Shown here: positions 40,473-55,826 of the stretch, one piece after another
Numbering within the stretch: position 1 is the first letter of the stretch
How the letters are laid out: each line of letters starts with the position of its first letter
Notes under the pieces: model-generated
What the model was told of the DNA's origin: nothing
The model's input: only the letters and a program-made list of their open reading frames with translations
Databases searched by the model: none
Source: Streptomyces sp. DG1A-41
Lineage (GTDB): Bacteria > Actinomycetota > Actinomycetes > Streptomycetales > Streptomycetaceae
Direction of reading: 5' to 3'
Length of the DNA: 64,000 nt
Assembly: GCF_037055355.1 (NCBI RefSeq)
Contig: NZ_CP146350.1
Span: forward strand, 3,805,001 to 3,869,000
Program-made: the position numbers and the translations under genes

Positions 40473-42362
40473 GTGGCCACTGCGGAGCCGACACGCGCCG
40501 ACGACGCCGATCCGGGCCCGGTATCCGGCCCGCGAATACGCCTGCCCGCAGCCGGGGAAGGCGGCGGCCGGGACGGCCGTGAGGCCGGCGCCTCCAGCGA
40601 CTCCACTGGCTCCCCCGGCTCCCCTGACTCCCGGCTGCGGACCGCCGTACTGACGCTGCGTGAGCGCATGCTGCGCCACCCGGTCCTGTCCGTCACGGGT
40701 CTGGCCGGAGTGCTCCACGTCGTCTGGTTCTTCACGTTCGCGAACAGCGGCGGCGATCTGGCCGCGCAGGACGCCTGGGCCGAGTTCGTCGGCCGGCACC
40801 CGGACTCGGCGTACAACCTCGCCTGGTACGGCGGGATGCACCCGGTGTCGTACAGCATGGTGTCGCCGTATCTGATGTCGGTGCTCGGCGTGCGGACCAC
40901 GATGATGATCGCGGGGACGGTCTCGGCGGGACTGCTGACCCTGCTCCTGCTGCGCAGCCGGTCCGTCCGCAACCCCCTGTGGGCCTCGCTGGCGGGCGTG
41001 TTCGGGCTGTTCTGCAACGCGGTGTCCGGGCGGGTGACGTTCGGCCTGGGCATGATGTTCGCGCTCGGCGCGGTCGCCGTCGTGTTCTGCTGGCCGTACC
41101 GGTGGCGTTACAAGCGCTGGGCGAAGGCCCTGTCCGCGGCGCCGCTGGCCGCGCTGGCCACCATGGCGTCGCCGGTCGCGGGGCTGTTCGTGGGCCTGGT
41201 CGCGGTGGCGCTGTTCCTCCAGAAGCGGCGCCCGGGCGCGTGGGCGCTGGGGCTGGCGCCGAGTGCGGTGGTGGCGATGTCGGCGTGGCTGTTCCCGTTC
41301 TCGGGGACGCAGCCGATGACGTACGCCTCGGTGATCCTGCCGCTCACGTACTCGATTCTCGCCTTCGCCCTCGTGCCGAAGGACTGGAGGACAGTCCGGC
41401 TGACGGCCGCGGTGTACGGGCTGGGTGTCGTGCTGGTGTGGCTGATCAGCTCCCAGATCGGTTCGAACATCACGCGGCTGGCGATGCTGTTCGCCGGGGT
41501 GGTACTGGTCGTCGCGCTGCCGTTCGCGGTGCCGCGCAGCCGCAAGTGGTACGCGATCGTCGTCGCGTTCGTCGGTTTCACCGGGTGGATCGGCTTCAAG
41601 ACGGTCGACGACGTCGTGCACACGGCCCCGGCGGCGTCCTGGTCGCGCGAGCTGGCGCCGCTGGTGAACGAGTTGCAGGAGGTCGGCGCCGAGAAGGGCC
41701 GCGTGGAGGTCGTCCCCGCCCGCTCCCACCGCGAGGCCTCCGCCCTCGCCCCCTACGTCAACCTGGCCCGCGGCTGGAACCGGCAGGCCGACATGGAGCG
41801 CAACCCCCTCTTCTACGACGACACGCTCAACTCGGCGAACTACCACGAGTGGCTGAAGCGCTGGGCGGTGCACTACGTGGTGCTGCCGAAGGACGAGCCG
41901 GACGGCGACGGGGGTCAGCGGGAGCGGGCGCTGGTGCAGCGCGGGCTGCCGTATCTGACCCAGGTCTGGGGCGACGCCAACTGGCAGCTGTTCAAGGTGG
42001 CCGACCCCACCCCGCTGGCCGCGCCGAACGCGGTCGTCGACCGGGCCGAGCAGGGCGAGATGATCCTCCAGGTGAAGAAGGCGGGCCGGGTCCTGATCCG
42101 TATCCCGTACTCGCCGTGGCTGAGCATCGTCGACGCCGAGGGCAAGAGCCTGAAGCCGCCGCAGGAGACGGAGGAGTCCAGGAGGCGTCCCGAGGGCGAG
42201 CCGAGGACGTACGTCAACGTCAACGGCTGCCTGGCGGAGACGGAGGAGGACGAGGAGGGCGATAGGTGGACGGTGCTGGTCGCGCCGAAGCCGGGCACCT
42301 ACCACCTGGCGGCGCCCTACCAGCTGCCCCGGGGCACGCCGTGCCCGGAGGAGCTGCGCTGA
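40473..42362 (+). CDS. Polytopic membrane protein with extracytoplasmic C-terminus
   Basis: A 629-residue protein: about 65 disordered residues, about 10 membrane helices (first LSVTGLAGVLHVVWFFTFAN; others around FGLGMMFALGAVAVVFCWPY and LLTLLLLRSR) and a 200-residue soluble C-terminal domain (SWSRELAPLVNELQEVGAEK and on, ending CPEELR). The helix layout resembles GT-C-like or YfhO-like membrane proteins that handle polyprenyl sugars, but I see no catalytic Asp motif to prove it. GTG start. It follows the carboxypeptidase by about 195 bases and may also act in the envelope. Confidence 0.6.
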   Translation: MATAEPTRADDADPGPVSGPRIRLPAAGEGGGRDGREAGASSDSTGSPGSPDSRLRTAVLTLRERMLRHPVLSVTGLAGVLHVVWFFTFANSGGDLAAQDAWAEFVGRHPDSAYNLAWYGGMHPVSYSMVSPYLMSVLGVRTTMMIAGTVSAGLLTLLLLRSRSVRNPLWASLAGVFGLFCNAVSGRVTFGLGMMFALGAVAVVFCWPYRWRYKRWAKALSAAPLAALATMASPVAGLFVGLVAVALFLQKRRPGAWALGLAPSAVVAMSAWLFPFSGTQPMTYASVILPLTYSILAFALVPKDWRTVRLTAAVYGLGVVLVWLISSQIGSNITRLAMLFAGVVLVVALPFAVPRSRKWYAIVVAFVGFTGWIGFKTVDDVVHTAPAASWSRELAPLVNELQEVGAEKGRVEVVPARSHREASALAPYVNLARGWNRQADMERNPLFYDDTLNSANYHEWLKRWAVHYVVLPKDEPDGDGGQRERALVQRGLPYLTQVWGDANWQLFKVADPTPLAAPNAVVDRAEQGEMILQVKKAGRVLIRIPYSPWLSIVDAEGKSLKPPQETEESRRRPEGEPRTYVNVNGCLAETEEDEEGDRWTVLVAPKPGTYHLAAPYQLPRGTPCPEELR

Positions 42363-42374
42363 CCCTGCCGGCTC

Positions 42375-42632
42375 TCAGCGGAGGCGGTCGACGTACCGGT
42401 CCGTTCCCGGCACCGTCGGGACGAAGGGCGCGACCAGCTCCACCCGCCCGAGCCCGGATTCGCCGACCGCCGTGTCGAGGCCGGTTAAAAAGGTTGCCCA
42501 GCATTCGCGCGGATCCGCCTGGAGGAACCACAGCAGGGTCAGCCGGGTGCCGACGCCCTCGACCTGCTTGACGTAGGTCATGCGGTCGCCGGGGAGCGGG
42601 GTCGGGCGGAGGTGAGAGAACCCACTCTCCAA
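42375..42632 (-). pseudogene. C-terminal fragment of an EthD-like (dimeric barrel) protein
   Basis: Encodes about 75 residues (RPTPLPGDRMTYVKQVEGVG, then a LTLLWFL segment and VPTVPGTDRYVDRLR at the end) closely matching the last 75 residues of the intact gene at 42663-43520. Everything upstream of TPLP is missing. The N-terminal piece of the same kind of gene is found on the same strand at 51944-52048, on the other side of the chaperone/protease island. Confidence 0.75.
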
Positions 42633-42662: not shown

Positions 42663-43520
42663 ATGACAGAGGATGCGACGCACACCCATGAAACCCACAG
42701 CCGCGCGTATGCGGACCTGGCCGCCGTCGGCCCCTACGGAGCCGACCTCGGACACGCCCTGATCACCATGGTCGAGCCGCACCCCGGCCACGAACGCCAG
42801 TACAATCGCTGGTACGAAGACGACCACTTCATTGCCGGCGCGATGGCCATGCCGTGGATGTACGCGGGCCGCCGCTGGGTCGCCACACGGGACTTGCAGC
42901 TTCTGCGCTATCCCCAGACCTCTGCCGTCGCGCAGCCGGTGACGGCAGGGTGCTACCTCTCCGTCTACTGGATGACCGCGGGCCGCTACGCCGACCACAT
43001 GCGGTGGACCGTCAGCATCAACAAGCGCCTCAACCGCGACCACCGCGTCTTCCAGGAACGTACGCACATTTTCACGGCCTTCCAGGACCATGCGGCGACG
43101 GTCTACCGCGACGGCGACCACGGCCCGCGTGACATCCACGCCCTCGACCACCCCTTCGCCGGGCTCGTCGTCCAGGTCATCGACGCCAGTTCCCCCGACG
43201 GGCGCGGGGAACTGCTCGCGTGGCTGCGCGACGACCACCTTCCGAAACGGCTGGAGGGCTCGCCCGCGGCCATGGTGGCCGTCTTCACGCCAACGCCGTT
43301 GCCAGTGGACCGGATGAGCTATGTCAAACAGGTCGAGGGGGTCGGGATCCGGCTGACCCTTCTGTGGTTCTTCCTGCACGATCCCCGCGACCACTGGCAG
43401 GAGCACTTCGCGGACCTGGACACGGCGGTGGCGTCGTCCGGGCTGGGCGAGGTGCAGTTCGTCGCTCCGTTCATACCGACGGTGCCCGGGACGGACCGTT
43501 ACGTGGACGAGTTGCGGTGA
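42663..43520 (+). CDS. EthD-like tandem alpha/beta-barrel protein
   Basis: A 285-residue protein built of two similar halves: GHALITMVEPHPGHERQYNR with WYEDDHF near residues 34-60, and GLVVQVIDASSPDGRGELLA with LRDDHLPKRL in the second half. The RWYEDDHF-type motif is that of EthD/dimeric ferredoxin-like barrel proteins, which act in small-molecule oxidation or as binding partners. The family's exact role is not known to me. It is the first gene of the island and stands in reverse orientation to the two fragments of its homologue. Confidence 0.55.
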   Translation: MTEDATHTHETHSRAYADLAAVGPYGADLGHALITMVEPHPGHERQYNRWYEDDHFIAGAMAMPWMYAGRRWVATRDLQLLRYPQTSAVAQPVTAGCYLSVYWMTAGRYADHMRWTVSINKRLNRDHRVFQERTHIFTAFQDHAATVYRDGDHGPRDIHALDHPFAGLVVQVIDASSPDGRGELLAWLRDDHLPKRLEGSPAAMVAVFTPTPLPVDRMSYVKQVEGVGIRLTLLWFFLHDPRDHWQEHFADLDTAVASSGLGEVQFVAPFIPTVPGTDRYVDELR

Positions 43521-43632
43521 GCCCTGGGTCAGCAGCGCGAGCCTGGGAGATACGCTGAAGCGGCGGTCAACCGCCGCTGGAATGGGCATGATTGCGGTGG
43601 TAGCAGTTCCGTGCGCTAAGGGGGAATCAGCG

Positions 43633-45252
43633 GTGACGCGTGTGGTGGGCATCGACCTGGGGACGACGTACTGCGCCGTGGCGGTCGCCGACCGGTCGGG
43701 AAGCCCGTCCATCGTCCGCAACCGGGAGGGCGAGAACATCACACCGTCCGTGGTGATGTTCCAGGGCGACACCGTTGTCGTCGGCTCCCAGGCGAAGCGG
43801 TCTGCGGCCACGGCTCCCGACCACGTGGTGCAGTTCGTCAAGCGCTACATGGGGGAGACCAACCCGGTCTACCACTCGGAGTCCGGTACGCCGTACCGGC
43901 CTGAGGAGATCTCCGCTCTGCTACTCAAACGCCTCAAGGAAGATGCCGAGATCATGTTGGGCGAGCCCGTCGAGCAGGCGGTGATCACCGTACCCGCGTA
44001 CTTCGACGACGTCCGGCGCAAGGCGACGCAGGACGCCGGGCGGCTCGCCGGGCTCGAGGTGCTGCGTATCGTCAACGAGCCCACCGCGGCCGCGCTCGCC
44101 TATGGCCTCGAGCAGTCCTCCGCGGACGGCGGGGAAGACGGGGAGGGTGGTGGGAGCATCGGCACCGTACTCGTCTACGACCTGGGCGGCGGCACCTTCG
44201 ACGTCACCGTCATGCGGGTCGAGGACGGCGACTACACGGTGATTGCCACCGACGGGGACCGCAACCTCGGCGGATTCGACTGGGACGGCGCGCTGATGAA
44301 CCACCTCAACGGCGCGTTCATGGCCTCGGGCGGTCCGGACCTCAATGAGGACAGCGCGCTTCAGGCTGAGCTGCGCGACAAGGCGGAGATCGCCAAGCGG
44401 ACCCTCTCCAACGCCCCACAGGCCGTCGTGATGCTCTCCGCCGGCGGCCGCCACGAGCAGATCCGGGTGACCCGCGAGAAGTTCGAGGAGATCACCGCCG
44501 AGCTGCTCGACCGCACCCGCATCATCACCGAGGGTGTGCTGGAGGAGGCCGGCCTCGGCTGGGACGGCATCGACCGGATACTGCTGGTCGGCGGCTCCAC
44601 CCGGATGCCCATGGTGCAGGAGCTGATCCAACGGCTCTCCGGCAGGGAGCCGGAGCGCGGCATCGCCCAGGACGAGGTGGTCGCGCTCGGCGCCGCACTG
44701 GTCGCGCTGGATGCCGCGGTGCGCGCCGAGGAGGCGGAGGAGAAGCGGAAGTACGTCGGCAGCGGCGCGAGCGTCGAGTCCGCCCCCGGCGACGGCCTGG
44801 CCCGCCTCACCAAGGGGAAGGTGAAGTCCATCAAAGACGTCACCTCGCAGTCTCTCGGCATGGTCACGACCAACTCGGAGAACCACGACCACCAGTACAA
44901 CACGGTGATCATCCCGCACAACACGCCCGTGCCGGCCAAGAAGAGCGACATCTTCTGCACTCTCTTCGACCGGCAACGGCGGCTCCTGGTACGGGTGACG
45001 GAGGGCGACGACGAGGACCTGGCGTACGTGAAGACGGTCGGGGAGAGCACCATCGAGATCCCGCAGTACCCGAAGGGCGCGCCGTTCGAGGTGTTCTACT
45101 CCTACGACGTCGACGGCATCATCCACGTCGAGGTGAAGGACGGCACCACGGGCAAGTGGCTCGGCGAGTTCGAGCTCGAACGTCCCGACAACCTGAGCCC
45201 GGAAGAGCTGGCCGAGTTCGGTGACCGTGTCGCCCGCGTCTCGACCCTGTAG
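43633..45252 (+). CDS. Hsp70-family chaperone, lidless
   Basis: A 539-residue Hsp70. ATPase motifs: phosphate 1 VVGIDLGTTYCAVAVAD, connect 1 VNEPTAAALAYGL, phosphate 2 VLVYDLGGGTFDVTVM and adenosine site ILLVGGSTRMPMVQEL. A beta-type substrate domain follows (about 420-539, TSQSLGMVTT, VIIPHNTPVPAKKS), but the helical lid of DnaK (about 100 residues) is absent. I chose GTG at 43633 with AGGGGGAA upstream. It is not the housekeeping dnaK locus: the partners here are a J-like TPR protein, GrpE, caspase and CHAT proteases, suggesting a dedicated sensor or switch. It is followed after 30 bases by the J-like gene. Confidence 0.9.
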   Translation: MTRVVGIDLGTTYCAVAVADRSGSPSIVRNREGENITPSVVMFQGDTVVVGSQAKRSAATAPDHVVQFVKRYMGETNPVYHSESGTPYRPEEISALLLKRLKEDAEIMLGEPVEQAVITVPAYFDDVRRKATQDAGRLAGLEVLRIVNEPTAAALAYGLEQSSADGGEDGEGGGSIGTVLVYDLGGGTFDVTVMRVEDGDYTVIATDGDRNLGGFDWDGALMNHLNGAFMASGGPDLNEDSALQAELRDKAEIAKRTLSNAPQAVVMLSAGGRHEQIRVTREKFEEITAELLDRTRIITEGVLEEAGLGWDGIDRILLVGGSTRMPMVQELIQRLSGREPERGIAQDEVVALGAALVALDAAVRAEEAEEKRKYVGSGASVESAPGDGLARLTKGKVKSIKDVTSQSLGMVTTNSENHDHQYNTVIIPHNTPVPAKKSDIFCTLFDRQRRLLVRVTEGDDEDLAYVKTVGESTIEIPQYPKGAPFEVFYSYDVDGIIHVEVKDGTTGKWLGEFELERPDNLSPEELAEFGDRVARVSTL

Positions 45253-45282
45253 GTCCCGACCCTCCAGCCGGAGCCGGCAGCG

Positions 45283-46392
45283 ATGACGACCGACGACATC
45301 CCCGACTACTACGCGGAGTTCGGCATCGACCGTGCCGCGACCGCGGACCAGGTCTCCCGGCAGCTCGACCGGGCCTTCCGCACCTGGTCGAGCCGGGCCA
45401 GCCGGGGCCCCGACGCCAAGAAGCGACGGGAGGCCGAGGACAAGGTCGAGCTGATCTACGAGGCACGGAAGGAACTGCTCGACGCCACCCGGCGCCACGC
45501 CTACGACCGCCGGCTGGACCAGGCGCGGCAGCGCCCCCGCTCACCGGAGCCCGCGCCGCAACCGCAACCGCAACCGCAGTCAGCCCAGCACGGCCGGGAC
45601 TGGGTGAAGCACGCCCGCAGGCTGATGAGCGAGGGCGACGACGAGGGCGCGCTGTACGAGCTGCGGCAGGCCGTGCACCACGACGAGGGCAACGGCGACG
45701 CCTGGCGGCTGCTCGGTGCCCTCCACGCCAAGCAAGGTCAGTTGGGCGACGCGTTGCAGGAGTTCCAGCGGGCTCGTGCACTGTACCCCGGCGACGCGCT
45801 CACCCACTCTCTGATCGCCCGGGTCTACGAGCAGCTAGGCGATCACGTCACCGCCGCCAACTGGCACCTGACGGCGGCTCAGCTCGCACCCGCCGACGTC
45901 GACCTCCAGATCACCGCCGCCGACAGCCTCTACCGGACCGGCCGCTACGACGAGGCACTGAGCACATACGAACGAGCCCTGGCGGAGTGGCCCGGCCACA
46001 ACGGCGTCAGCAACCAGATCGGCTGGATCTGGTTACGGCGCGCCGAGGGCGCCATGGTCTGGCACCCGACCAGGCAGCGGTACGTCATCGCCTCGGCGGA
46101 CAGTGTCCCGGTGGTCACGCACTGCGTGGGCCAAGCGCTGGCCGTCGGTGTCTCGGATGTCGAGCTCCGCGACCGGCTGACCGCGTACCGGGTGGATGCG
46201 GCCGAGGCACTCGGCAGGACCTGGCGCTGGTACAAGAGCATGGCCTCGGTCATGGGCGTCTGCGTCGCGCTGATGCTCACGCTGCCGGATCCGCTCGGTC
46301 TGCTGCCCCTTGCCGGGTTCTTCGGGCTGCCGATCGCGATGGGCGTCAAGCCGCGATGGCGGCACACCTACAACGACCTGCGCCCGCGCTGA
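45283..46392 (+). CDS. J-domain-like TPR membrane protein
   Basis: A 369-residue protein. Residues 5-80 follow a J-domain (DYYAEFGIDRAATADQVSRQ, helix II, loop, then KVELIYEARKELLDATRRHA with YDRRL), but the HPD tripeptide is GPD (42-44). After a PQPQ linker come at least three TPR units (about 100-245: HARRLMSEGDDEGALYELRQ, GDAWRLLGALHAKQGQLGDA, AADSLYRTGRYDEALSTYER). Two membrane helices near the C-terminus (SVMGVCVALMLTLPDPLG, LLPLAGFFGLPIAMGV) anchor it. Likely the co-chaperone that brings clients or effectors to the adjacent Hsp70. Confidence 0.8.
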   Translation: MTTDDIPDYYAEFGIDRAATADQVSRQLDRAFRTWSSRASRGPDAKKRREAEDKVELIYEARKELLDATRRHAYDRRLDQARQRPRSPEPAPQPQPQPQSAQHGRDWVKHARRLMSEGDDEGALYELRQAVHHDEGNGDAWRLLGALHAKQGQLGDALQEFQRARALYPGDALTHSLIARVYEQLGDHVTAANWHLTAAQLAPADVDLQITAADSLYRTGRYDEALSTYERALAEWPGHNGVSNQIGWIWLRRAEGAMVWHPTRQRYVIASADSVPVVTHCVGQALAVGVSDVELRDRLTAYRVDAAEALGRTWRWYKSMASVMGVCVALMLTLPDPLGLLPLAGFFGLPIAMGVKPRWRHTYNDLRPR

Positions 46393-46415
46393 AGGCCGCA
46401 ACCCGGGAGAGATTC

Positions 46416-47039
46416 ATGACCACACCACCGTTCGTGCCCCAGCCGGGGGAGCCGCACGTCCCACCGCCCCCGGAGCCGGCCGAACCGCCGCAGGACCCGC
46501 GGCCCGGCCCTGTCGCGGAACCCGGGCCCGACCCCGCTCCCGCTCCCCCGGCCACCGCGCCGGGGCCCGACCCGTTCGCCGTCGTGGCCGACGCGGTCGA
46601 CGGCATGCGCGACGAACTGGCCGCACTCGGTGACCAGTTTCGCCGACGGCTGCTCAACGACCGGGAGGCCCGCCGCAGCCTCGACGGTCTGCTGACCGAG
46701 CTCGACCACACGCGCAAGGCCGCCGAGGGCCGCATCGTGCAGCCGCTGCTCTACGACCTCGTACTCCTCGTCGACCGGGTCGAGCGGCAGGCCGCGCAGG
46801 GCGACGCCTTCGCCGGCTCCGTCGCCGCGGAGCTGCTGGCTCTGCTGGAGAAGTACGGCATGACCCGCATCCCCGTCACCCGCGGCCCGTTCAACCCCGA
46901 CATGCAGGAGGCCGTCGGGGCGATCGCCGCGCTCTCCCCGGAACAGAGCGGCGAGATCGCGGAAGTGGTGCGGCACGGCTACCGGATGGATGAGCGCGTC
47001 GTGCGGCCGCAACAAGTCCGCGTCTATAACGACCGGTGA
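46416..47039 (+). CDS. GrpE-like nucleotide exchange factor
   Basis: A 207-residue protein: a proline-rich N-terminus (about 55 residues), a long helix with coiled-coil character (VVADAVDGMRDELAALGDQF, LLNDREARRSLDGLLTELDH) and a GrpE beta-wing (GPFNPDMQEAVGAIAALSPE, then VVRHGYRMDERVVRPQQVRV). GrpE proteins release ADP from Hsp70. Having its own exchange factor argues that the island's Hsp70 cycles independently of DnaK. Its stop overlaps the caspase start (GTGA). Confidence 0.85.
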   Translation: MTTPPFVPQPGEPHVPPPPEPAEPPQDPRPGPVAEPGPDPAPAPPATAPGPDPFAVVADAVDGMRDELAALGDQFRRRLLNDREARRSLDGLLTELDHTRKAAEGRIVQPLLYDLVLLVDRVERQAAQGDAFAGSVAAELLALLEKYGMTRIPVTRGPFNPDMQEAVGAIAALSPEQSGEIAEVVRHGYRMDERVVRPQQVRVYNDR

Positions 47040-48994
47040 GCGGCTGCCGGATGGGAACCGTTTACGCCCTGCTCACGGGCATCAACACCTACACCGCCAA
47101 CCGTTGCACACCGCTCGCAGGGTGTCTCAACGACATCGAGGCCGCCGAAGAGATGCTGCTGCGACGCGCCGGCGGGCGGCTCGAGCTCAGTAAGTCGCTG
47201 AACGGCGACGCCACCGTGAGCGCTGTCGAGACGGCCATCCGACGCCACCTCGGACAGGCGGGGCCCGGGGACACGGCGCTGTTCTGGTTCTCCGGCCACG
47301 GCACCGAGAAGCCGGCCACCGAACGAGTGCACCTGGACATCGAGGCCACCGGCCGCTACCAGGCCCTCGTCTGCGCGGACGGCCTGCTCGTCGACAAACG
47401 CCTCGGCGCGCTCCTCAACGAGGTGGCCGCGGGCGGCGCCCACACGGTCGCGGTCCTGGATTGCTGCTACGCCGGCGGCGCCACCCGCGGCCGGCACCTC
47501 ACTCCGCGCTTCGCGTCCCCCGACCCCGCCTGGTTCGCGGCGGCCGCACGCGACGCCCGCCTTCCCGAGCAGCCGGCCCGGCATGTGCTGCTCGCCGCCA
47601 CCCGGCTCGACCAGCCCTCCTACGAGGGCCGGTTCGGCGGCCGGACGCATGGTCTGTTCACGTACGCCCTGCTGGGCGCGCTGCGCGCGGCAGGGCCGGC
47701 CGCGACGTACCGCGAGGTGCACGCCGCCACCCGGTCCCGGCTGCAGGTCTCCTGCGAGTACCAGCGGCCGACGCTGACACCCGCCGAACCCGGCGGGGTT
47801 GCCGACCAGCCGTTCCTCGGCGGAGCCGGGGCGCGCGAGCCCAGCCCGTACCTGCTGTGGGAGGACCGGCAGGACGGCTGGCAGGTCGACTGCGGCAGCG
47901 GCCACGGCCTACCCCCGGGGCCGGGCACCGAGTTCCGGGTGACCCGGCCCGATACTCCCCGGCGGGCTCCTGAGCGGACGGAGGCCGTGGGCCGGACGGT
48001 CAGGGCCGTGACCGTGGACTCGGAACGCACGCTCGTCGAGCCGGTGGGCTGGGCCCCGGAGCCGGCGCGGGTCTACCCGGTGGCTCTCTCCGCACTGGCC
48101 GTGCCGGCGGCCTCGGTCGCCCTGTCCGCACCCGGCGACCCCGCCGCGGCTCGGGCGCTGGAGCGGGCGGTCGCCGAAGCCGGGCCCGGCGCCGGGCCCT
48201 CCCCGCTGCTGCGCCTCGTCGGTCGGCCGGAGGAGGCCGGCGGCCTGCTGTTCCGGGTCGAGGCCCGCGAGGGCCTGGCTCACGTGCTGCGGCGCGACGG
48301 CTCCCCCTTCGTCCACCCGCTGCCGATGGCCGGGGCCGAGGACGCGGACCGGGTCGCGGCCTGCCTCATCCACCTGACCCGCTGGCACCGGCTCCGCGAC
48401 CTCGAGGCGCCTTTCGGCCCACTGACGGGACGGGTCCGGCTGGAGATCACGCCATGGGACAGCGACGTCCCGCTGGTGCCGGACGGCAACGGAGAGGTCG
48501 TCTGCCGGTACGGCCTCGGACCCGCCGGCCCCGTGCCGCCACTGGTCTCCGTACGGATCCGCCACCGGGCCACCACGGGCCGCCGGCTGTGGTGCGTCCT
48601 GCTCGACCTCACCGACAGCTACGCCTCCCACACCGGGCTCTTCGACGACGGCCGGTTCGTCGGCCCCGGCCGCATCGCGTACGCCCTGGACAACCGGCCC
48701 GTCCAGCTGTCCCTGCCGCCGCACCGGCCGCCGCGGCCCGGCGCGTTCGTACGGGACTGGCTGAAGCTGATCGTCTGCGAGGGCGAGCTGAACACCGTGC
48801 CCTTCCATCTCGACCGCTGGGACCCGCTCGCGCCCCTCGGCAGCCGGGATACCGCCCTCCGGCACGCGGACGGGGTGCTGCGGTTCGACGCGCCGGAGCG
48901 GAGCAGCAGGGACGCCGGGCCGGGGGAAGCGGGCGGGCCTGGGCAGTGGGCCACGCAGACGGTTCAGGTGCGCACCGTCGTGCCCCAGTGGTGA
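47036..48994 (+). CDS. Caspase-like (C14) protease with C-terminal beta region
   Basis: A 652-residue protein. The first 260 residues are a caspase/metacaspase p20-p10 unit: YALLTGINTYTANRC strand, catalytic His 88 in FWFSGHGTE, catalytic Cys 144 in AVLDCCYAGGA, and the p10-like RTHGLFTYALLGALR. The remaining 390 residues are mostly beta, with no motif I recognise (ending in a Gly-rich tail), perhaps an interaction or substrate domain. Bacterial caspases of this kind execute cell suicide or act downstream of sensors in conflict systems. GTG start overlaps grpE by four bases. Confidence 0.85.
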   Translation: MSGCRMGTVYALLTGINTYTANRCTPLAGCLNDIEAAEEMLLRRAGGRLELSKSLNGDATVSAVETAIRRHLGQAGPGDTALFWFSGHGTEKPATERVHLDIEATGRYQALVCADGLLVDKRLGALLNEVAAGGAHTVAVLDCCYAGGATRGRHLTPRFASPDPAWFAAAARDARLPEQPARHVLLAATRLDQPSYEGRFGGRTHGLFTYALLGALRAAGPAATYREVHAATRSRLQVSCEYQRPTLTPAEPGGVADQPFLGGAGAREPSPYLLWEDRQDGWQVDCGSGHGLPPGPGTEFRVTRPDTPRRAPERTEAVGRTVRAVTVDSERTLVEPVGWAPEPARVYPVALSALAVPAASVALSAPGDPAAARALERAVAEAGPGAGPSPLLRLVGRPEEAGGLLFRVEAREGLAHVLRRDGSPFVHPLPMAGAEDADRVAACLIHLTRWHRLRDLEAPFGPLTGRVRLEITPWDSDVPLVPDGNGEVVCRYGLGPAGPVPPLVSVRIRHRATTGRRLWCVLLDLTDSYASHTGLFDDGRFVGPGRIAYALDNRPVQLSLPPHRPPRPGAFVRDWLKLIVCEGELNTVPFHLDRWDPLAPLGSRDTALRHADGVLRFDAPERSSRDAGPGEAGGPGQWATQTVQVRTVVPQW

Positions 48995-49009
48995 GGAGCG
49001 GTTATCCGT

Positions 49010-51963
49010 ATGCCTGATCCCCTCGACCTCGAGTCTCTGGTGCGCTCTGTGAAGGCGGTGATCGGTGACCGGGCGTGGATCACGGCGACCGAGCGACTCA
49101 GCGCGATGGTCGCGGAGCACGCGGGCACGGCCGATGCCGCGGCGGCCTTCGACCTCTACTACGCCCACTGGCGGAGCATGCCCGCCACCGACCCGCGCCA
49201 CCCGGCCTTCGCCGGCTATCTGCTCCAGCTCGTACCACTGATGCGGCAGAGCGGGCCGTGCTGCACGCACGAACAGGCGCAGGAACTGGCGGCGGCGGCG
49301 CGGACCAGGCGGGATCCGGAGTGGCAGGCGTTCATCAAGGGTGTCCTGGCGCTCGTCGTGCTTCAGGACGCCACCGCCACGCACACGGATCCGGGGCTGC
49401 TCCAGCAGGCGGTGGAGGACCTCGAGTCGGCTTCCGGCCTGCTCCCGGCCATGGACGGGACGCCTGACGCCACCGCCACCGGCTTTGTCATCGGCCGTGC
49501 GGTGGCGCGGGCGGAGCACGCACGGCTGCGCGGGGGCGAGGGCGAACTCGACGTGGCAATCGAGGAGTTGGCCGCGGCCCGGCGGGGCCTGGCCGACCGG
49601 CCGGACGACCAGGTGTACCTCACCTGCTACATCGCCTGCCTTCGCGCCGGCCGGGCCTACCTCGGCAGGGACGAGGAGGCACTGGCCCGGTACATCCGCG
49701 AGCAGGAGATCGCCCTGGCCCGGCTGCCGCGCCACCACCCGGGGCGGGACAGCGCCGAGTCGTGGCTCGCCACCGACCGGTTGAAGCTCCGGAGCCTGAT
49801 CGCCGACCGGACGGGCGAGCCCTGGCCGGGATCGCGGCCCCGGCTCGGCGCCCACAAGCGGCCCGACCCGACGGACCCTTACGCGCTGGTGCAGGCCGCA
49901 CTCGAAGTGATCCCCGGAGCTGCGTACGACGAGAACCCGGAGGCGATGGCCGAGGCCATCGGCCTGCTCCAGGAGGCTCTGGAGCAGTGCGAGGAGGACG
50001 GCGAGCACTGGATGCGGTGCGCGGCCCAACTGGCCACCGCTCACCTCCTGCGGGCCGGACTCATCCGCTGGGAACCGAAGCCGCTCAGCCACCTGTCTCC
50101 TGCGGGCCGACGGATCATCGCCCACATCGACCAGGCCATCTCCCTGCTGCGTCGGGTCCGGCGCACCGCCGAGGGGCCGGCCCACCCGCTGTGGACCGGC
50201 GTCGGCCGCCTCCTCGCCGACGCGCTGCGCTTGCGGTCGATGATGATGCCGCAGGCCCGGTCGGCCGCCGCCGCGCGGCTGTGGAAGGAGTCACGGGAGA
50301 TCGGCCTCGCCGCGCTGTCCGGCCTCGCCTGGAACGTCATCCTCCAATCCGGTACCGGGCACGCCATGGAGGCGGGCAGCAGGGCGATGGAGGAACACTG
50401 CCTCGATATCGCCCGCTGGTGCGTCGTGGACGGCGAACTCGATACCGCGGTACGGGCGCTGGACAGCGGCCGCGCATTGATGCTGCACGCGGCGCAGGTC
50501 AGCGCCACCGTGCCGGACATGCTGAGCCAACTCGGCCAGGACGAGCTGGCCGAGGAATGGCGCGCGGCCGGACCGGTGCCGTTCGAGCCGGAGCCCGGCC
50601 CGCTCGGCCGCCTCGACCCCACGGCCGCGCTCCGCACGACCGGCCCCGATGTGCGGCTGCGGCGCCGGGTACTGAAGGTGCTGGCCGCATCGCCGTACCG
50701 CAACAGGCTGCTCGCGACGCCGGCCCCTGCCGAGATCGCCCGGGGGCTGCGGACCCTCGGCGCCGACGCGCTCATCTACCTGGTGCCGGCGGGGAACCTG
50801 GAGCTGCCAGTGCCGCGGAGCCGGACGGTTCCCGGCGCCGCGCTGATCGTCGGGGCCGGCGGGGCACTGCGCTCGGTCGAGCTGCCGGACCTGCGCCTCG
50901 ACGCCCCGGAGCTCACGGCGTACCGGGCCGCCGGCGGCGCGGGCCGGGACCCGCGCAGGCGCGGGGGTGGGAGCCCGCGCAGGGACGCGGGTCCGGTGAC
51001 GGCCCCCCAGGGCGGGGTGCCACCGCGAGGGGCCGAGGCGCTGGACCGGCTGTGCGGCTGGGCCTGGAGGTCCGTACTGGCGCCGCTGACGGCGGAGTTC
51101 CGCGGAAACGGCGGCTCCTACGACGCCCAGTCCGGCCCCTCCCGTATCCCCTCCGTCGTTCTCGTCCCCCTCGGCGCGCTCGGCGCCGTACCGTGGCACG
51201 CCGCCTGGCGCGCCGAGGGGCCAGGCCGGCGCTATGCGCTGGAGGAACTACAGGTCTCGTACGCGCCCTCGGCCCGGACGCTATGCGAGGTCGCCGGGCG
51301 CACGCCCCCCGACGCCGGGGCATCCGGCAGCCCAGCGTTGGTGATCGGCAACCCCACCGGAGACCTGAGGTACGCGGGCGAGGAGGCCAAGGCGATCCAC
51401 CGTGTGTTCTACCCGGACGGTACGTATCTCGACGCGGACACCGCTGATGCCACAGAAGTGTCCGCACGGCTGGCGGACCAGCGCGGCGGCGTGCTGCACC
51501 TGGCCTGTCACGCACGGGTCGACCCCGGCGAGCGGCACAGCGCGTACCTGGACCTGGCCGGGGGCAGCAGGCTGGCCGCGGAGGAACTGACCGAGGGCAC
51601 GGCCCGGCGGATCGAGCCCGGCCTGGTGTGCCTCGCCGCCTGCTGGAGCAACGTCTCGAGCCGCGGCTACGACGAGGCGTACAGCCTGGCCACCGCCTTT
51701 CTGGCGGCCGGCGCGCACACAGTGCTCGGCTCGCTGTGGCCGGTGCCGGACGAGGACACCTCCTTGCTGATGTACATGACCCATCACTACCTGCGGCGCG
51801 AGGCGCTGCCGCCGGGACAGGCCCTGCGCCGGGCCCAGCTGTGGATGCTGGACCCGCGGCGCAGGACTCCCCCGAGATGCCGGCCCGCCTCGCCGTCCGG
51901 GCCCGGTACATCCGCCCCGACAACCTGGTCGGCTGGGCGGGCTTCACCCACCAGGGCTGGTGA
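49010..51963 (+). CDS. TPR-CHAT protease, with a frameshift near the 3' end
   Basis: About 985 residues: a long helical TPR-like region (1 to about 560; e.g. EEALARYIREQEIALARLPR and SREIGLAALSGLAWNVILQS) and a C-terminal CHAT domain with His in VLHLACHARVD and Cys in LVCLAACWSNVSS, the caspase-related catalytic pair. CHAT proteases cut partner proteins once activated, as in TPR-CHAT effectors. The reading frame breaks at a CCCCC run (51869-51873). Adding one C gives the normal ending (MPARLAVRARYIRPDNLVGW, AGFTHQGW, stop at 51963). Without it the frame runs on to 52084 through unrelated DNA. The catalytic residues lie before the break. Confidence 0.8.
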
Positions 51964-52048
51964 TCAGGGCGTGGCCGGGACGGGTGCCGTAGGGGCCGAC
52001 GGCGGCCAGTTCGGCGTACAGCTCGCTGCGGGTGTCGTCGTCGTTCAT
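51944..52048 (-). pseudogene. N-terminal fragment of an EthD-like protein
   Basis: From ATG at 52048 (AAGGGGAAGG upstream) this reads 34 codons: MNDDDTRSELYAELAAVGPY, then GTRPGHALIT, matching the start of the intact homologue (YADLAAVGPYGADLGHALIT). Homology ends exactly where the CHAT gene's 3' end begins. Together with 42375-42632 it is one gene split by the island. Confidence 0.7.
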
Positions 52049-52080
52049 GCCTTCCCCTTCGTAGGCGGCCGGCTCATACT

Positions 52081-52095
52081 CTGACGCTACGTCAG
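52081..52095. promoter_or_regulatory. Operator palindrome CTGACGCTACGTCAG
   Basis: Perfect 6+3+6 palindrome in the divergent gap between the broken EthD-like gene and the SDR gene. A similar site stands before the intact EthD-like gene at 42635, so one repressor (TetR-type by site shape) probably controls both. Confidence 0.65.
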
Positions 52096-53095: not shown

Positions 53096-54667
53096 ATGAA
53101 CGGTCTCGACTGGGCCGTGCTCATCGGCTACTTCGCCGTGATGGTCGCGATCGGCGTCTGGTCGCACAAACGCGTGGACAACGTCAGCGACTTCTTCACC
53201 GCCGGCGGCAAGATGCCGTGGTGGCTCTCCGGCATCTCCCACCACATGTCGGGCTACAGCGCGGTGATGTTCACCGGGTACGCGGGCATCGCCTACACCT
53301 ACGGCGTCACGTCCTTCGTCACCTGGTCCTTCCCGATCGCCCTCGGCATCGCCATCGGTTCCAAGCTGTTCGCGCCGCGCATCAACCGGCTGCGCTCACG
53401 ACTCCATGTGGCCTCCCCGCTGGAGTACCTGAAGAACCGTTACGACCTGAAGACCCAACAGGCGCTGGCCTGGTCCGGCATGCTGCTGAAGATCGTGGAC
53501 GTGGGCGCGAAGTGGGCGGCGATCGCGACGCTGCTGTCCGTCTTCACGGGGATCTCCCTCAACCAGGGCATCCTCATCACCGGCGGCATCACGGCGATCT
53601 ACTGCACGATCGGCGGCCTCTGGGCGGACGCGCTGACCGAACTCGGCCAGTTCATCATCCAGTTGCTGGCCGGCATCGCGATGTTCGTGGCCGTGTTCGT
53701 ACGGCTCGACGACCACGGCGGCTTCTTCGGCGTCTGGGACTCCCCCGAGCTCCAGGGCCATGAGAAACCGCTGGTCGGCCCCTACGGCACGGTGTTCCTG
53801 CTGGCGTTCCTCTTCATCAAGCTCTTCGAGTACAACGGCGGCATGCTCAACCAGGCCCAGCGCTACATGGCCACGCCCAACGCCAAGGAGGCCGAGCGGT
53901 CGGCCCGGCTGTCGGCGATCCTCTGGCTGGTCTGGCCGCTGGTGCTGTTCTTCCCCATGTGGATGTCCCCGCTGCTGGTCGAGTCGCAGAAGGCCGACGG
54001 CTCCGACTCCTACGCCCTGATGACCGAACAGCTCCTGCCGCACGGCCTGCTGGGCCTGGTCATCGTCGGCTTCTTCTCGCACACCATGGCCATGTGCTCC
54101 TCGGACGCCAACGCCATCGCGGCCGTGTTCACCCGGGACTGCGCGCCGGTGATCTGGGCACGGGCCCGGGCCTGGAACCAGAGCCAGGGCCTGCGGGTCG
54201 CCCGGATCGCGACGGTCGTCTTCCTCGGTCTGTCCATGGCGGCGGCGACGCAGGTCAACTCCCCGACGTTCAAGGACATCATCACGGTCGTCATCAAGTG
54301 GGTGGCCGGTCTGATGGGCCCGATGGCGATCCCGATGATGCTGGGCCTGCTGCGGGCGTTCCGCCGCTCCGGCCCGACGGCGGCCCTCGTCAGCTGGTCG
54401 ATGGGCCTGCTCGCCTTCTGGCTGGTGAACTACCCGATCAACTGGAACGTCGAGGGCGGCGTGCCGCTCCAGTACCAGGTGTCGATCCCGCTGGCGGTGT
54501 CCCTGGTCCTCTACATCCTCGTCGGCTACGTCAAGCCGGAGGACACCCCGGAGCGGCTGGCGCTCATCGAAAAGATCAACACGGACGGGGACGGGACGGC
54601 GGCGGCCGCGGTTCCGGCACCGACCGGGCCGGCGGACGAGGTGGTGCGGACGACGGTCAAGGACTGA
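53096..54667 (+). CDS. Sodium:solute symporter family transporter
   Basis: A 523-residue SSS transporter with about 13 membrane helices. The first is WAVLIGYFAVMVAIGVWSHK; DFFTAGGKMPWWLSGISHHM is the SSS helix-1 region with the family's typical GG...W pattern. These carry sugars, amino acids or myo-inositol with Na+. The substrate is not clear; the sugar/SGLT-like subgroup is closest by eye. The C-terminal 40 residues are low-complexity. Convergent with, and overlapping by 11 bases, the next gene. Confidence 0.85.
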   Translation: MNGLDWAVLIGYFAVMVAIGVWSHKRVDNVSDFFTAGGKMPWWLSGISHHMSGYSAVMFTGYAGIAYTYGVTSFVTWSFPIALGIAIGSKLFAPRINRLRSRLHVASPLEYLKNRYDLKTQQALAWSGMLLKIVDVGAKWAAIATLLSVFTGISLNQGILITGGITAIYCTIGGLWADALTELGQFIIQLLAGIAMFVAVFVRLDDHGGFFGVWDSPELQGHEKPLVGPYGTVFLLAFLFIKLFEYNGGMLNQAQRYMATPNAKEAERSARLSAILWLVWPLVLFFPMWMSPLLVESQKADGSDSYALMTEQLLPHGLLGLVIVGFFSHTMAMCSSDANAIAAVFTRDCAPVIWARARAWNQSQGLRVARIATVVFLGLSMAAATQVNSPTFKDIITVVIKWVAGLMGPMAIPMMLGLLRAFRRSGPTAALVSWSMGLLAFWLVNYPINWNVEGGVPLQYQVSIPLAVSLVLYILVGYVKPEDTPERLALIEKINTDGDGTAAAAVPAPTGPADEVVRTTVKD

Positions 54668-55826
54668 GGCGCGAAGACCGGGGGCTGGGCTCAGGCCCTC
54701 GGATAGCGGGCGAGCCACCCCGGCGACGACCCCCGGGCCCGTGCAGGGCGGGCCCCTGGGTCATCTCCATGGCGAAGTCGTCGGCCAGTTCCAGGATCGT
54801 GGGACGGCCCTCCAGCTCGGCCAGCCAGGCCGGAGGGAGGGCCGTTTCGCCGTGCAGGGCGCCGAGCAGGCCGCCCGTCAGCGCGCCGGTGGCGGCGGAG
54901 GGGCCGTCGTGGTTGACGGCGAGCCTCAGTCCGTGCCGGACGTCGGCGGCGACGAGGGCGCAGTACGCGGCGGCACCGACGAGGCTCTCCGCCGTACCGG
55001 CCCCGCACAGCTCCGCCACGCGCTCCGGCCCGGGCAGCCCCTGGCGTACGGCACCGAGCGCCTGCTGGAGCGCGTCCGACACGGGCTGGTGCCCGGGCCG
55101 GGCGGCCAGCAGTGCGAAGGCCCGCTGCACGGCACCGTCGAGGCTCTCCCCCAGGGCGAGGGCGTGCACGATCGCGGCGTACGCACCCGCCGCGAGATAC
55201 GCCGTGGGATGACCGTGGGTCTGCGCCGCGCACTCCACCGCGAGCTGGACCACGAGCTGCGGCTCCCACCCCACGAGGAGCCCGAACGGGGCGGACCGGA
55301 CGGCGGCCTCGGGCCCCAGCTCACCGGGATTCTTGGGCGCCTCGGGGATCCCCATGGTCTCGTCGGCGAGCCCGAGGAGCAGCGCACGACCCGGATCCCT
55401 GCGCGCGTACAGCCACTCCTCCCGCGCGAGCCACCCGTCGTCCTTGCGCCGCTCGTCGGGCCCCCAGTCCCGCTGCGTGGCGGCCCAGCGCAGATAGGCC
55501 CGGTGCAGGTCGGTGGGCGGATGCCAGGCGCCGGTGTCCCGCCGCACCTGGGCCCGTATCAGCCCGTCCACGGAGAACAGGGTGAGCTGGGTGAGATGGG
55601 TGACGGCACCGCGTCTGCCATAGGCGGGAGCCAGATCGACCAGCCCCTCCGCCCCGTACGCCTCCCTGATCCCGTCGATCCCCAGCCCGTCCACGGGCGC
55701 ACCCAGCGCGTCCCCGACGGCCAAGCCGAGGAGCGTCCCCCGCACCCGGCTACGAAAGTCCTGCTGCTCCGTACGCCCCCAGACGGCACCGGCAGTCGCA
55801 CCCACCTTGACCTCCCAGGGGTCCAT
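54657..55826 (-). CDS. ADP-ribosylglycohydrolase homologue without metal ligands
   Basis: A 389-residue protein with the ARH helical fold (RGTLLGLAVGDALGAPVDGL at the start, NHDGPSAATGALTGGLLGAL near 305-325). Active family members use TDDT and DxDST/DSDT motifs to hold two Mg ions. Here they read THLT (76-79) and PSAA (309-312), so all the key Asp residues are gone. It is probably a catalytically dead binding protein, or one with altered chemistry. ATG at 55826 is assumed; the homologous part starts near residue 22. Confidence 0.75.
   Translation of the reverse strand: MDPWEVKVGATAGAVWGRTEQQDFRSRVRGTLLGLAVGDALGAPVDGLGIDGIREAYGAEGLVDLAPAYGRRGAVTHLTQLTLFSVDGLIRAQVRRDTGAWHPPTDLHRAYLRWAATQRDWGPDERRKDDGWLAREEWLYARRDPGRALLLGLADETMGIPEAPKNPGELGPEAAVRSAPFGLLVGWEPQLVVQLAVECAAQTHGHPTAYLAAGAYAAIVHALALGESLDGAVQRAFALLAARPGHQPVSDALQQALGAVRQGLPGPERVAELCGAGTAESLVGAAAYCALVAADVRHGLRLAVNHDGPSAATGALTGGLLGALHGETALPPAWLAELEGRPTILELADDFAMEMTQGPALHGPGGRRRGGSPAIRGPEPSPRSSRLSP

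What the first reader, a model, noticed from the sequence alone, without database searches (positions are those of the whole stretch)
43582..51963. Hsp70 / J-like TPR / GrpE / caspase / CHAT operon: candidate chaperone-gated protease conflict system
Seen: five genes, gaps of 30 and 23 bases, a GTGA overlap and 15 bases, one strand. They encode a lidless Hsp70, a membrane TPR protein with a J-like N-terminus, a GrpE homologue, a caspase with H88/C144 intact and a TPR-CHAT protease with its His/Cys pair. Known: each family is well defined; CHAT and caspase proteases act as suicide effectors in several defence systems. Inference: a dedicated chaperone cycle (own exchange factor, own co-chaperone) senses misfolded or foreign protein at the membrane and releases or loads two clan-CD proteases. 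I know of no experimental description of this five-gene combination.
Basis: partly seen in the sequence, partly recalled or inferred. Interest (0 to 1): 0.9.

Follow-up and report, generated by a model that had tools for sequence, protein, structure and literature searches.

The report
Chaperone trio joined to suicide-type proteases
A Streptomyces operon joins two gene sets that usually live apart, a stripped-down Hsp70 chaperone trio and a caspase/CHAT protease pair that elsewhere often sits beside a predicted NAD-destroying toxin, which suggests a chaperone-controlled self-destruct or damage-response device that remains untested.

Summary
The five genes are there as described and recur elsewhere, but the operon is a composite of two separable modules. 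(A) Lidless Hsp70, J-like TPR protein, GrpE: in this order in 12 of 13 Streptomycetaceae loci found and in two genomes of another family. Some lack the proteases, and three lie near a clpB-type gene. The J domain is a true homologue but lacks the HPD histidine in all 58 readable family rows. (B) Caspase and CHAT protease: 12 of 150 sampled Streptomyces genomes have this caspase, and all 12 have CHAT beside it. In the ten without the trio the pair is convergent, and eight of these also carry a RES (NAD+-phosphorylase-type toxin) gene. The caspase tree is consistent with one joining of pair and trio; one locus shows a decayed caspase. Two genomes carry trio and RES system side by side. Tested flanking genes are not conserved with the operon. 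Most likely the trio gates the proteases; that coupling is inferred, not shown. CHAT in this assembly is frameshifted in its last ~31 codons, after the catalytic residues. The genome has no GAP1-N2 gene, so this is not the published Hsp70/GrpE GTPase system.

The parts
43566..43592 (+). conserved promoter-like element GTCAA-N11-ATGGGCATGAT upstream of the trio
   Evidence: exact in the window and in 5 other independent trio loci (L001, L002, L003, L006=L012, L013), so 6 of 13; none in 100 shuffles; a looser pattern has two hits in the 9-Mb genome
   Evidence: Pfam HSP70 5.5e-129, ends after the beta part of the substrate domain; ATPase motifs intact, linker VLLLD replaced
45283..46392 (+). J-like TPR protein with a C-terminal hydrophobic hairpin; GPD in place of HPD
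46416..47039 (+). GrpE-family exchange factor, own subfamily
   Evidence: Pfam 9.7e-14 above cut-off; profile vs GrpE chain 3a6m 1.6e-11
47036..48994 (+). caspase (metacaspase/orthocaspase fold) with a beta-rich C-terminal half of unidentified fold; start GTG 47036 or ATG 47051
   Evidence: Pfam C14 3.1e-19, H88/C144 invariant in 40 of 40, nearest solved folds metacaspases and GSU0716
49010..52084 (+). CHAT protease; frame changed after about residue 953, the relatives' frame would end at 51963
   Evidence: Pfam CHAT 4.6e-48; His834/Cys878 in 19 of 20 rows, one row cut off before them; one base fewer than 3 relatives near 51870

Best explanation
The operon is a composite of two separately inherited modules. 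Module A is a specialised Hsp70 machine: a lidless Hsp70, a membrane-anchorable TPR protein with an HPD-less J domain, and a dedicated GrpE. It may come from the proteostasis side of the genome, since three loci place it near a clpB-type gene. Module B is a caspase/CHAT protease pair from a Streptomyces conflict-type system whose usual partners are a RES (NAD+-consuming) toxin, a macro-like protein and an unknown protein. Shown: the composition, the separability, conservation of the five-gene unit in changing surroundings, and a caspase tree consistent with a single joining. Inferred: the trio acts as the sensor or threshold part for the proteases in place of the RES/macro partners. Without a lid and without HPD the Hsp70 would hold peptides loosely, and GrpE-driven exchange would set how long. 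Misfolded or foreign protein would compete for the Hsp70/TPR complex, free the caspase and CHAT proteases, and lead to limited proteolysis and growth arrest or death of the hyphal compartment.
For: Five-gene order in window, L001, L005, L013, with three tested flanking genes not shared. Trio without caspase or CHAT homologues in L006, L010, L011 and, in another family, L033, L034. Caspase adjacent to CHAT in 12 of 12 Streptomyces genomes. RES in 8 of the 10 without the trio; Fisher 9e-11 for the eight closest RES genes, chosen after seeing the hits and uncorrected for kinship. Eleven caspases form one clade (100/99) nested in the family: four read from trio operons and seven whose link to the trio rests on equal contig lengths. 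L004 and L005 carry RES, Y and a caspase on the opposite strand beside the trio. The caspase is decayed in L002, and the standalone system of the own genome is reduced to a RES-CHAT remnant, as expected of costly effectors.
Against: No interaction, activity, toxicity or protection data. The trio persists without the proteases, so it must have another job there. Trio and caspase coincide in only 2 of the 150 sampled genomes (Fisher 0.017). With only the four directly read trio rows labelled, the tree needs 4 label changes and no bootstrap tree has one, so the single joining leans on the contig-length links. PADLOC gives only a generic caspase model and weak BovA matches for the five proteins. 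The CHAT C-terminus is out of frame in this assembly. No plasmid hit for the GrpE. HPD and linker changes speak against a normal Hsp70 cycle. Outside actinobacteria, three plasmid stretches with the caspase (L025, L026, L027) show no CHAT homologue, so the pair is not universal.
Confidence: 0.5

Rival explanations
1. Stress proteostasis unit: the trio is a KJE-like side machine that hands damaged proteins to two proteases for clearance, with no suicide or anti-phage role.
For: A ClpB-type gene lies 0.1-1.7 kb upstream on the opposite strand in L009, L010, L011, and housekeeping-type dnaK and grpE lie within 10 kb in L010 and L011; TPR and Hsp70 peptide-binding parts are kept.
Against: Caspases and CHAT proteases are site-specific proteases, not processive degraders (established knowledge, recalled); elsewhere the same pair often sits with a RES toxin gene; no HspR (HAIR) site at the window trio, best match 6 mismatches.
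Confidence: 0.22
2. Developmental cell death: the unit serves programmed lysis during the Streptomyces life cycle rather than defence.
For: The named GrpE and close TPR-J hits are from Streptomyces and its near relatives; a conserved promoter-like element without HspR site.
Against: Rare (3 of 150 Streptomyces genomes for the close trio) and with a decayed caspase in one locus, unlike a core developmental gene.
Confidence: 0.15
3. Passive co-transcription: the protease pair landed behind the trio promoter and the two do not work together.
For: Both modules live apart in most genomes sampled.
Against: The joined order survives at about 60-90% protein identity between the window and L001, L005, L013, with tested flanking genes not shared, and seven further caspase clusters share a contig length with trio genes.
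Confidence: 0.13

Closest known systems
GAP1-N2 GTPase-centric conflict systems with HSP70, GrpE and DnaJ/TPR-fused proteins (Kaur et al. 2020, PMC7159879; passages seen)
   Same: HSP70 plus GrpE plus a DnaJ- or TPR-containing protein in a predicted conflict neighbourhood of multicellular bacteria; a subset carries a second HSP70 lacking its peptide-binding domain
   Different: GAP1-N2 has no match in this genome and none of nine neighbours scanned is a GTPase; here Hsp70 keeps the beta substrate domain and lacks the lid; caspase and CHAT take the effector place
EACC1-caspase two-gene system (same paper, passages)
   Same: caspase at the N-terminus with a different C-terminal half, actinobacteria, membrane link
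   Different: caspase_w_EACC1 model 69.5 bits against a cut-off of 140; the gene upstream is GrpE, not EACC1
Craspase TPR-CHAT Csx29 (type III-E CRISPR)
   Same: CHAT protease with a long N-terminal part
   Different: 38.8 bits against 300; no CRISPR-associated gene among the nine neighbours scanned; CRISPR arrays were not searched for
RES NAD+-phosphorylase toxin-antitoxin modules (recalled; listings)
   Same: 9 of 12 standalone relatives of the protease pair carry a RES gene, with a small unknown gene Y next to it
   Different: no RES homologue in the window; Y matches no antitoxin family

Membership tests
Hsp70/DnaK | ATPase domain with phosphate and adenosine motifs | tested here: met
   GIDLGTT, DLGGGTFD, GGSTRMP present
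Hsp70/DnaK | helical lid of the substrate-binding domain | tested here: not met
   protein ends where the lid begins in the 11 trio-type rows that were readable
Hsp70/DnaK | hydrophobic interdomain linker VLLLD | tested here: not met
   reads KSIKDVTSQSLG; role of the linker recalled
J-domain protein (DnaJ/Hsp40) | J-domain homology | tested here: met
   profile vs DnaJ chains 2.1e-12; four N-terminal helices in the model
J-domain protein (DnaJ/Hsp40) | HPD tripeptide | tested here: not met
   His absent in 58 of 58 readable family rows and in L011, L033, L034; present in L014, L015
GrpE | GrpE domain above the Pfam cut-off | tested here: met
   51.8 bits against 25.8; chain match 1.6e-11
Caspase C14 (orthocaspase) | His/Cys dyad and caspase fold | tested here: met
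   H88, C144 invariant in 40 of 40; Foldseek best hits metacaspases
CHAT protease | CHAT domain with His/Cys dyad | tested here: met
   164.6 bits against 24; dyad in 19 of 20 rows, one cut off before it
GAP1-N2 GTPase-centric system | GAP1-N2 gene with a GTPase | tested here: not met
   no PF20013 match in the whole genome; 1 of 14 control genomes rings
EACC1-caspase system | caspase of the EACC1-associated type with an EACC1 gene upstream | tested here: not met
   69.5 bits, cut-off 140; upstream gene is GrpE
anti-phage defence system | protection against phage | not testable with these tools
   no experiment possible; PADLOC gives only a generic caspase and weak BovA matches

The most novel reading that the evidence does not exclude
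A dedicated, lidless, HPD-independent Hsp70 machine serves as a guard that holds a caspase and a CHAT protease off until protein damage or phage protein titrates it. This would be a bacterial chaperone-gated two-protease death switch, swapped in for the RES/macro partners that the same proteases have in other Streptomyces.
Probability: 0.3. Interest if true: 0.85.

Novelty: new variant of a known kind. Interest (0 to 1): 0.62.

Why it matters
If true, it would be a bacterial case in which an Hsp70 cycle itself sets the threshold for caspase-type proteases, a link known in animals as inhibition of apoptosis by Hsp70 (recalled). Independently of that, the work exposes a recurrent Streptomyces locus (macro-like, unknown Y, RES, CHAT and caspase genes) that my library searches did not show described. 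It also suggests that a protease pair of this kind is combined with alternative partner modules, which makes gating testable by swapping or deleting modules in one laboratory strain.

Tried and rejected
Rejected: GAP1-N2 GTPase system (absent from the genome); EACC1 system (below cut-off); HspR/HAIR control of the window trio (best match 6 mismatches). Controls in the same call: own dnaK2 0, L010 dnaK 1, L011 dnaK 2, L010 clpB 2, but own dnaK1 3, L011 clpB 3 and L009 clpB 6; the L011 trio has 3, in the stretch shared with clpB; no chance level was computed. Plasmid carriage of the GrpE: no match. Antitoxin identity of Y: no family or chain worth naming; a likeness to the C-terminus of MbcA-type antitoxins occurred to me from memory and is not shown. 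The 50 rows shown for the TPR-J model are mostly TPR chains, and residues 1-99 are barely tested by them. The caspase model gave no fold for residues 270-650 that I could name among the 50 rows shown. RES by sequence found no sensible PDB chain.

Literature: ten listings; one search found no paper with all its terms. I saw passages of PMC7159879 and PMC8195603 only; all other papers were seen as listings. No paper describing this five-gene combination turned up in these; most subscription papers are not held.

Limits and rows dropped: the genome scan used two exact peptide patterns, so its 11 loci are a lower bound (it did not list G136). In one search the rows L003, L005 and L009 were extracted from wrong start points and came out nearly empty, L008 was not included, and part of the output was cut, so the Hsp70 statements rest on the other rows. 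In one search one row (P0116) is N-terminally truncated and P0098 was missed by the search pattern and read by eye as APD. L007 and L009 end soon after grpE and cannot show a payload; L014 and L015 likewise. The caspase remnant in L003 is read by eye from one short stretch and is weak. Of 89 plasmid records with a caspase match I opened five: two have CHAT beside the caspase, three (Nostoc, Deinococcus, Nostoc) do not.
Full report
What is in the window. The window lies in a single-contig 9.0-Mb genome whose nearest named relatives are Streptomyces. I correct three points. The Hsp70 start is probably GTG 43633: the ATG at 43582 falls inside a 27-base element, GTCAA-N11-ATGGGCATGAT, that is exact upstream of the trio in the window and five other independent loci (6 of 13), and absent from 100 shuffles. 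A looser form occurs twice in the whole genome. The CHAT gene has one base fewer than three relatives near 51870, so its last ~31 codons are out of frame and the ORF runs to 52084; His834 and Cys878 lie before that point. The J-like domain is a real J homologue (2.1e-12 against DnaJ chains) but reads GPD instead of HPD.

Two modules, not one. A GrpE profile against 84,980 species genomes, through two exact peptide patterns, gave 11 loci, all in Streptomyces and genera that I know as Streptomycetaceae. With the window and G136 (L013) that makes 13 independent loci; L012 (G077) is the same as L006. Hsp70, TPR-J and GrpE occur in this order in 12 of 13; L008 shows no Hsp70 and has an integrase-type gene upstream. 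What follows GrpE varies: caspase and CHAT in 4 (window, L001, L005, L013); CHAT, with a caspase on the opposite strand upstream of the trio, in 1 (L004, contig ends inside CHAT); a decayed caspase in L002 (70.7% over 58 residues) and perhaps in L003 (by eye only); no pair in 4 (L006, L008, L010, L011); contig ends too soon in 2 (L007, L009). In the class-wide sample 3 of 246 genomes matched at E <= 1e-112: the own genome and two of another family, G245 and G324. Both have the trio in the same order at about 50-55% Hsp70 identity and no caspase or CHAT homologue in 20 kb. In the genus sample 5 of 150 matched at E <= 1e-100: three close members (G000, G077, G136) and two about 50% identical relatives. 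These two (L014, L015) have the order TPR-J, Hsp70, GrpE and keep HPD. The sample of relatives gave 3 of 199. In L009, L010 and L011 a ClpB-type gene lies 0.1-1.7 kb upstream on the opposite strand, and L010 and L011 have housekeeping-type dnaK and grpE within 10 kb.

The protease pair. Homologues of the caspase are common: 239 clusters at E <= 0.001 among the 7,996 candidates scored, the best 120 listed, nearly all of those over 90% or more of its length. In 150 Streptomyces genomes 12 carry it at E <= 1e-60, and in 12 of 12 a CHAT homologue is adjacent. Ten of these have no trio beside the pair. With the S. clavuligerus plasmid (L023) and an Embleya plasmid (L024) that makes 12 standalone loci. 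All 12 are convergent, caspase against CHAT, whereas in the window operon both genes run the same way. Of the 12, nine have a RES gene, nine the unknown gene Y, eight a macro-like gene and seven a membrane protein Z; Pfam names RES in the two tested, 7.3e-16 and 1.6e-20. The macro assignment is modest: 6 of 7 members match Pfam Macro, best 3.9e-4, and the best PDB chain has E 0.011. RES at E <= 1e-40 was found in 11 of 150 genomes. The eight closest all lie beside the pair. G096, G108 and a second copy in G120 are distant, lie near CHAT, Y and macro-like genes, and show no caspase. The own genome has only a RES fragment run into a CHAT tail, which I read as the wreck of a standalone system. 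Two loci join both worlds: L005 reads macro-like, Y, RES, caspase (opposite strand), then trio, caspase, CHAT; L004 reads Y, RES, caspase (opposite strand), trio, CHAT. Against a universal pair: the caspase homologues on two Nostoc plasmids and a Deinococcus plasmid (L025, L027, L026) have no CHAT homologue in the stretch fetched.

Joining. In a tree of 31 caspases the four read from trio operons and seven database clusters (P0133, P0135-P0138, P0140, P0141) form one clade of 11 (100/99). The opposite-strand caspases of L004 and L005 lie elsewhere (100/100 as a pair). The seven clusters share the length of their longest contig with a trio gene in the listings, which is indirect evidence of linkage. 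Without them, the label on the four rows alone needs 4 changes. So one joining is the simplest reading, not a proof. The flanking genes of the window operon that I tested (40473-42362, 42663-43520, 53096-54667) had no reportable match in the trio loci: the five genes stay together while these neighbours change. In the genus sample trio and caspase coincide in 2 of 3 trio genomes (Fisher 0.017), and the closest RES genes and caspase in 8 of 8 (9e-11, chosen after seeing the hits); neither is corrected for kinship.

The parts as machines. The Hsp70 keeps its ATPase motifs and the beta part of its substrate domain, ends where the lid would begin, and has KSIKDVTSQSLG where the own DnaKs have VLLLDVTPLSLG. 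The TPR-J protein models as four N-terminal helices, TPRs and two C-terminal helices in the hydrophobic stretch (pLDDT 83.5; hydropathy maximum 1.86 at 323). L011's copy lacks that end, so membrane anchoring is not universal. The HPD histidine is missing in 58 of 58 readable rows, mostly as APD, which looks like a conserved change rather than decay. The caspase half fits metacaspases and GSU0716, and its C-terminal half is beta-rich without an identified relative.

How it most likely works. Shown: a composite operon, separable modules, conserved protease active-site residues, and alternative partner genes around the same proteases. Inferred: the trio takes the sensing or threshold role that RES, Y and macro-like genes have elsewhere. 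A lidless Hsp70 with its own GrpE and a TPR partner would bind exposed peptides quickly and loosely. Load from damaged or foreign protein would then free or deliver the proteases, with arrest or death as output. I give this 0.5, including the looser forms of gating. A damage-clearing unit (0.22), developmental lysis (0.15) and no coupling at all (0.13) remain open.

Novelty. Kaur et al. 2020 describe HSP70/GrpE/DnaJ-or-TPR neighbourhoods in GAP1-N2 GTPase systems (passages). That is the nearest published idea I found, but GAP1-N2 is absent from this genome, and no listing I obtained reports the present combination. I call it a new variant of a known kind.

Noticed in passing
L052:2895-10133 and L023, L047, L050-L056: A recurrent Streptomyces locus: macro-like, unknown Y, RES, CHAT convergent with a caspase, often with a membrane protein Z; looks like a conflict system in its own right and was not seen described in the library searches made.
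   Followed up: partly
L057:8661-9194 (G000 C1, about 7463661-7464194): Apparent remnant of that system in the window's own genome: middle of a RES gene run into the tail of a CHAT gene.
   Followed up: partly
L047, L048, L049: In three caspase-CHAT loci an AAA ATPase and a ~620-660 aa protein (weak PADLOC LmuB match in the one tested) lie on the caspase side, perhaps a third partner module.
   Followed up: partly
window 54657-55826 (-): ADP-ribosylglycohydrolase gene (Pfam 1.2e-57) about 2.6 kb downstream of the operon; a link to the RES/macro chemistry of the relatives is possible but unproven.
   Followed up: no
L025, L027 (Nostoc plasmids), L026 (Deinococcus plasmid): Caspase homologues outside actinobacteria reaching into the C-terminal half: two caspases in tandem in Nostoc, and in Deinococcus two caspases with a C1 peptidase and an I42 inhibitor; no CHAT homologue in these stretches.
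   Followed up: no
L014, L015: Related chaperone set in another order (TPR-J, Hsp70, GrpE) that still has the HPD motif; may show the ancestral state.
   Followed up: partly
window about 42378-42605 (-): A reverse-strand stretch 72% identical to the C-terminal 76 residues of the protein encoded at 42663-43520 (seen on L028), perhaps a partial inverted duplicate just upstream of that gene.
   Followed up: no
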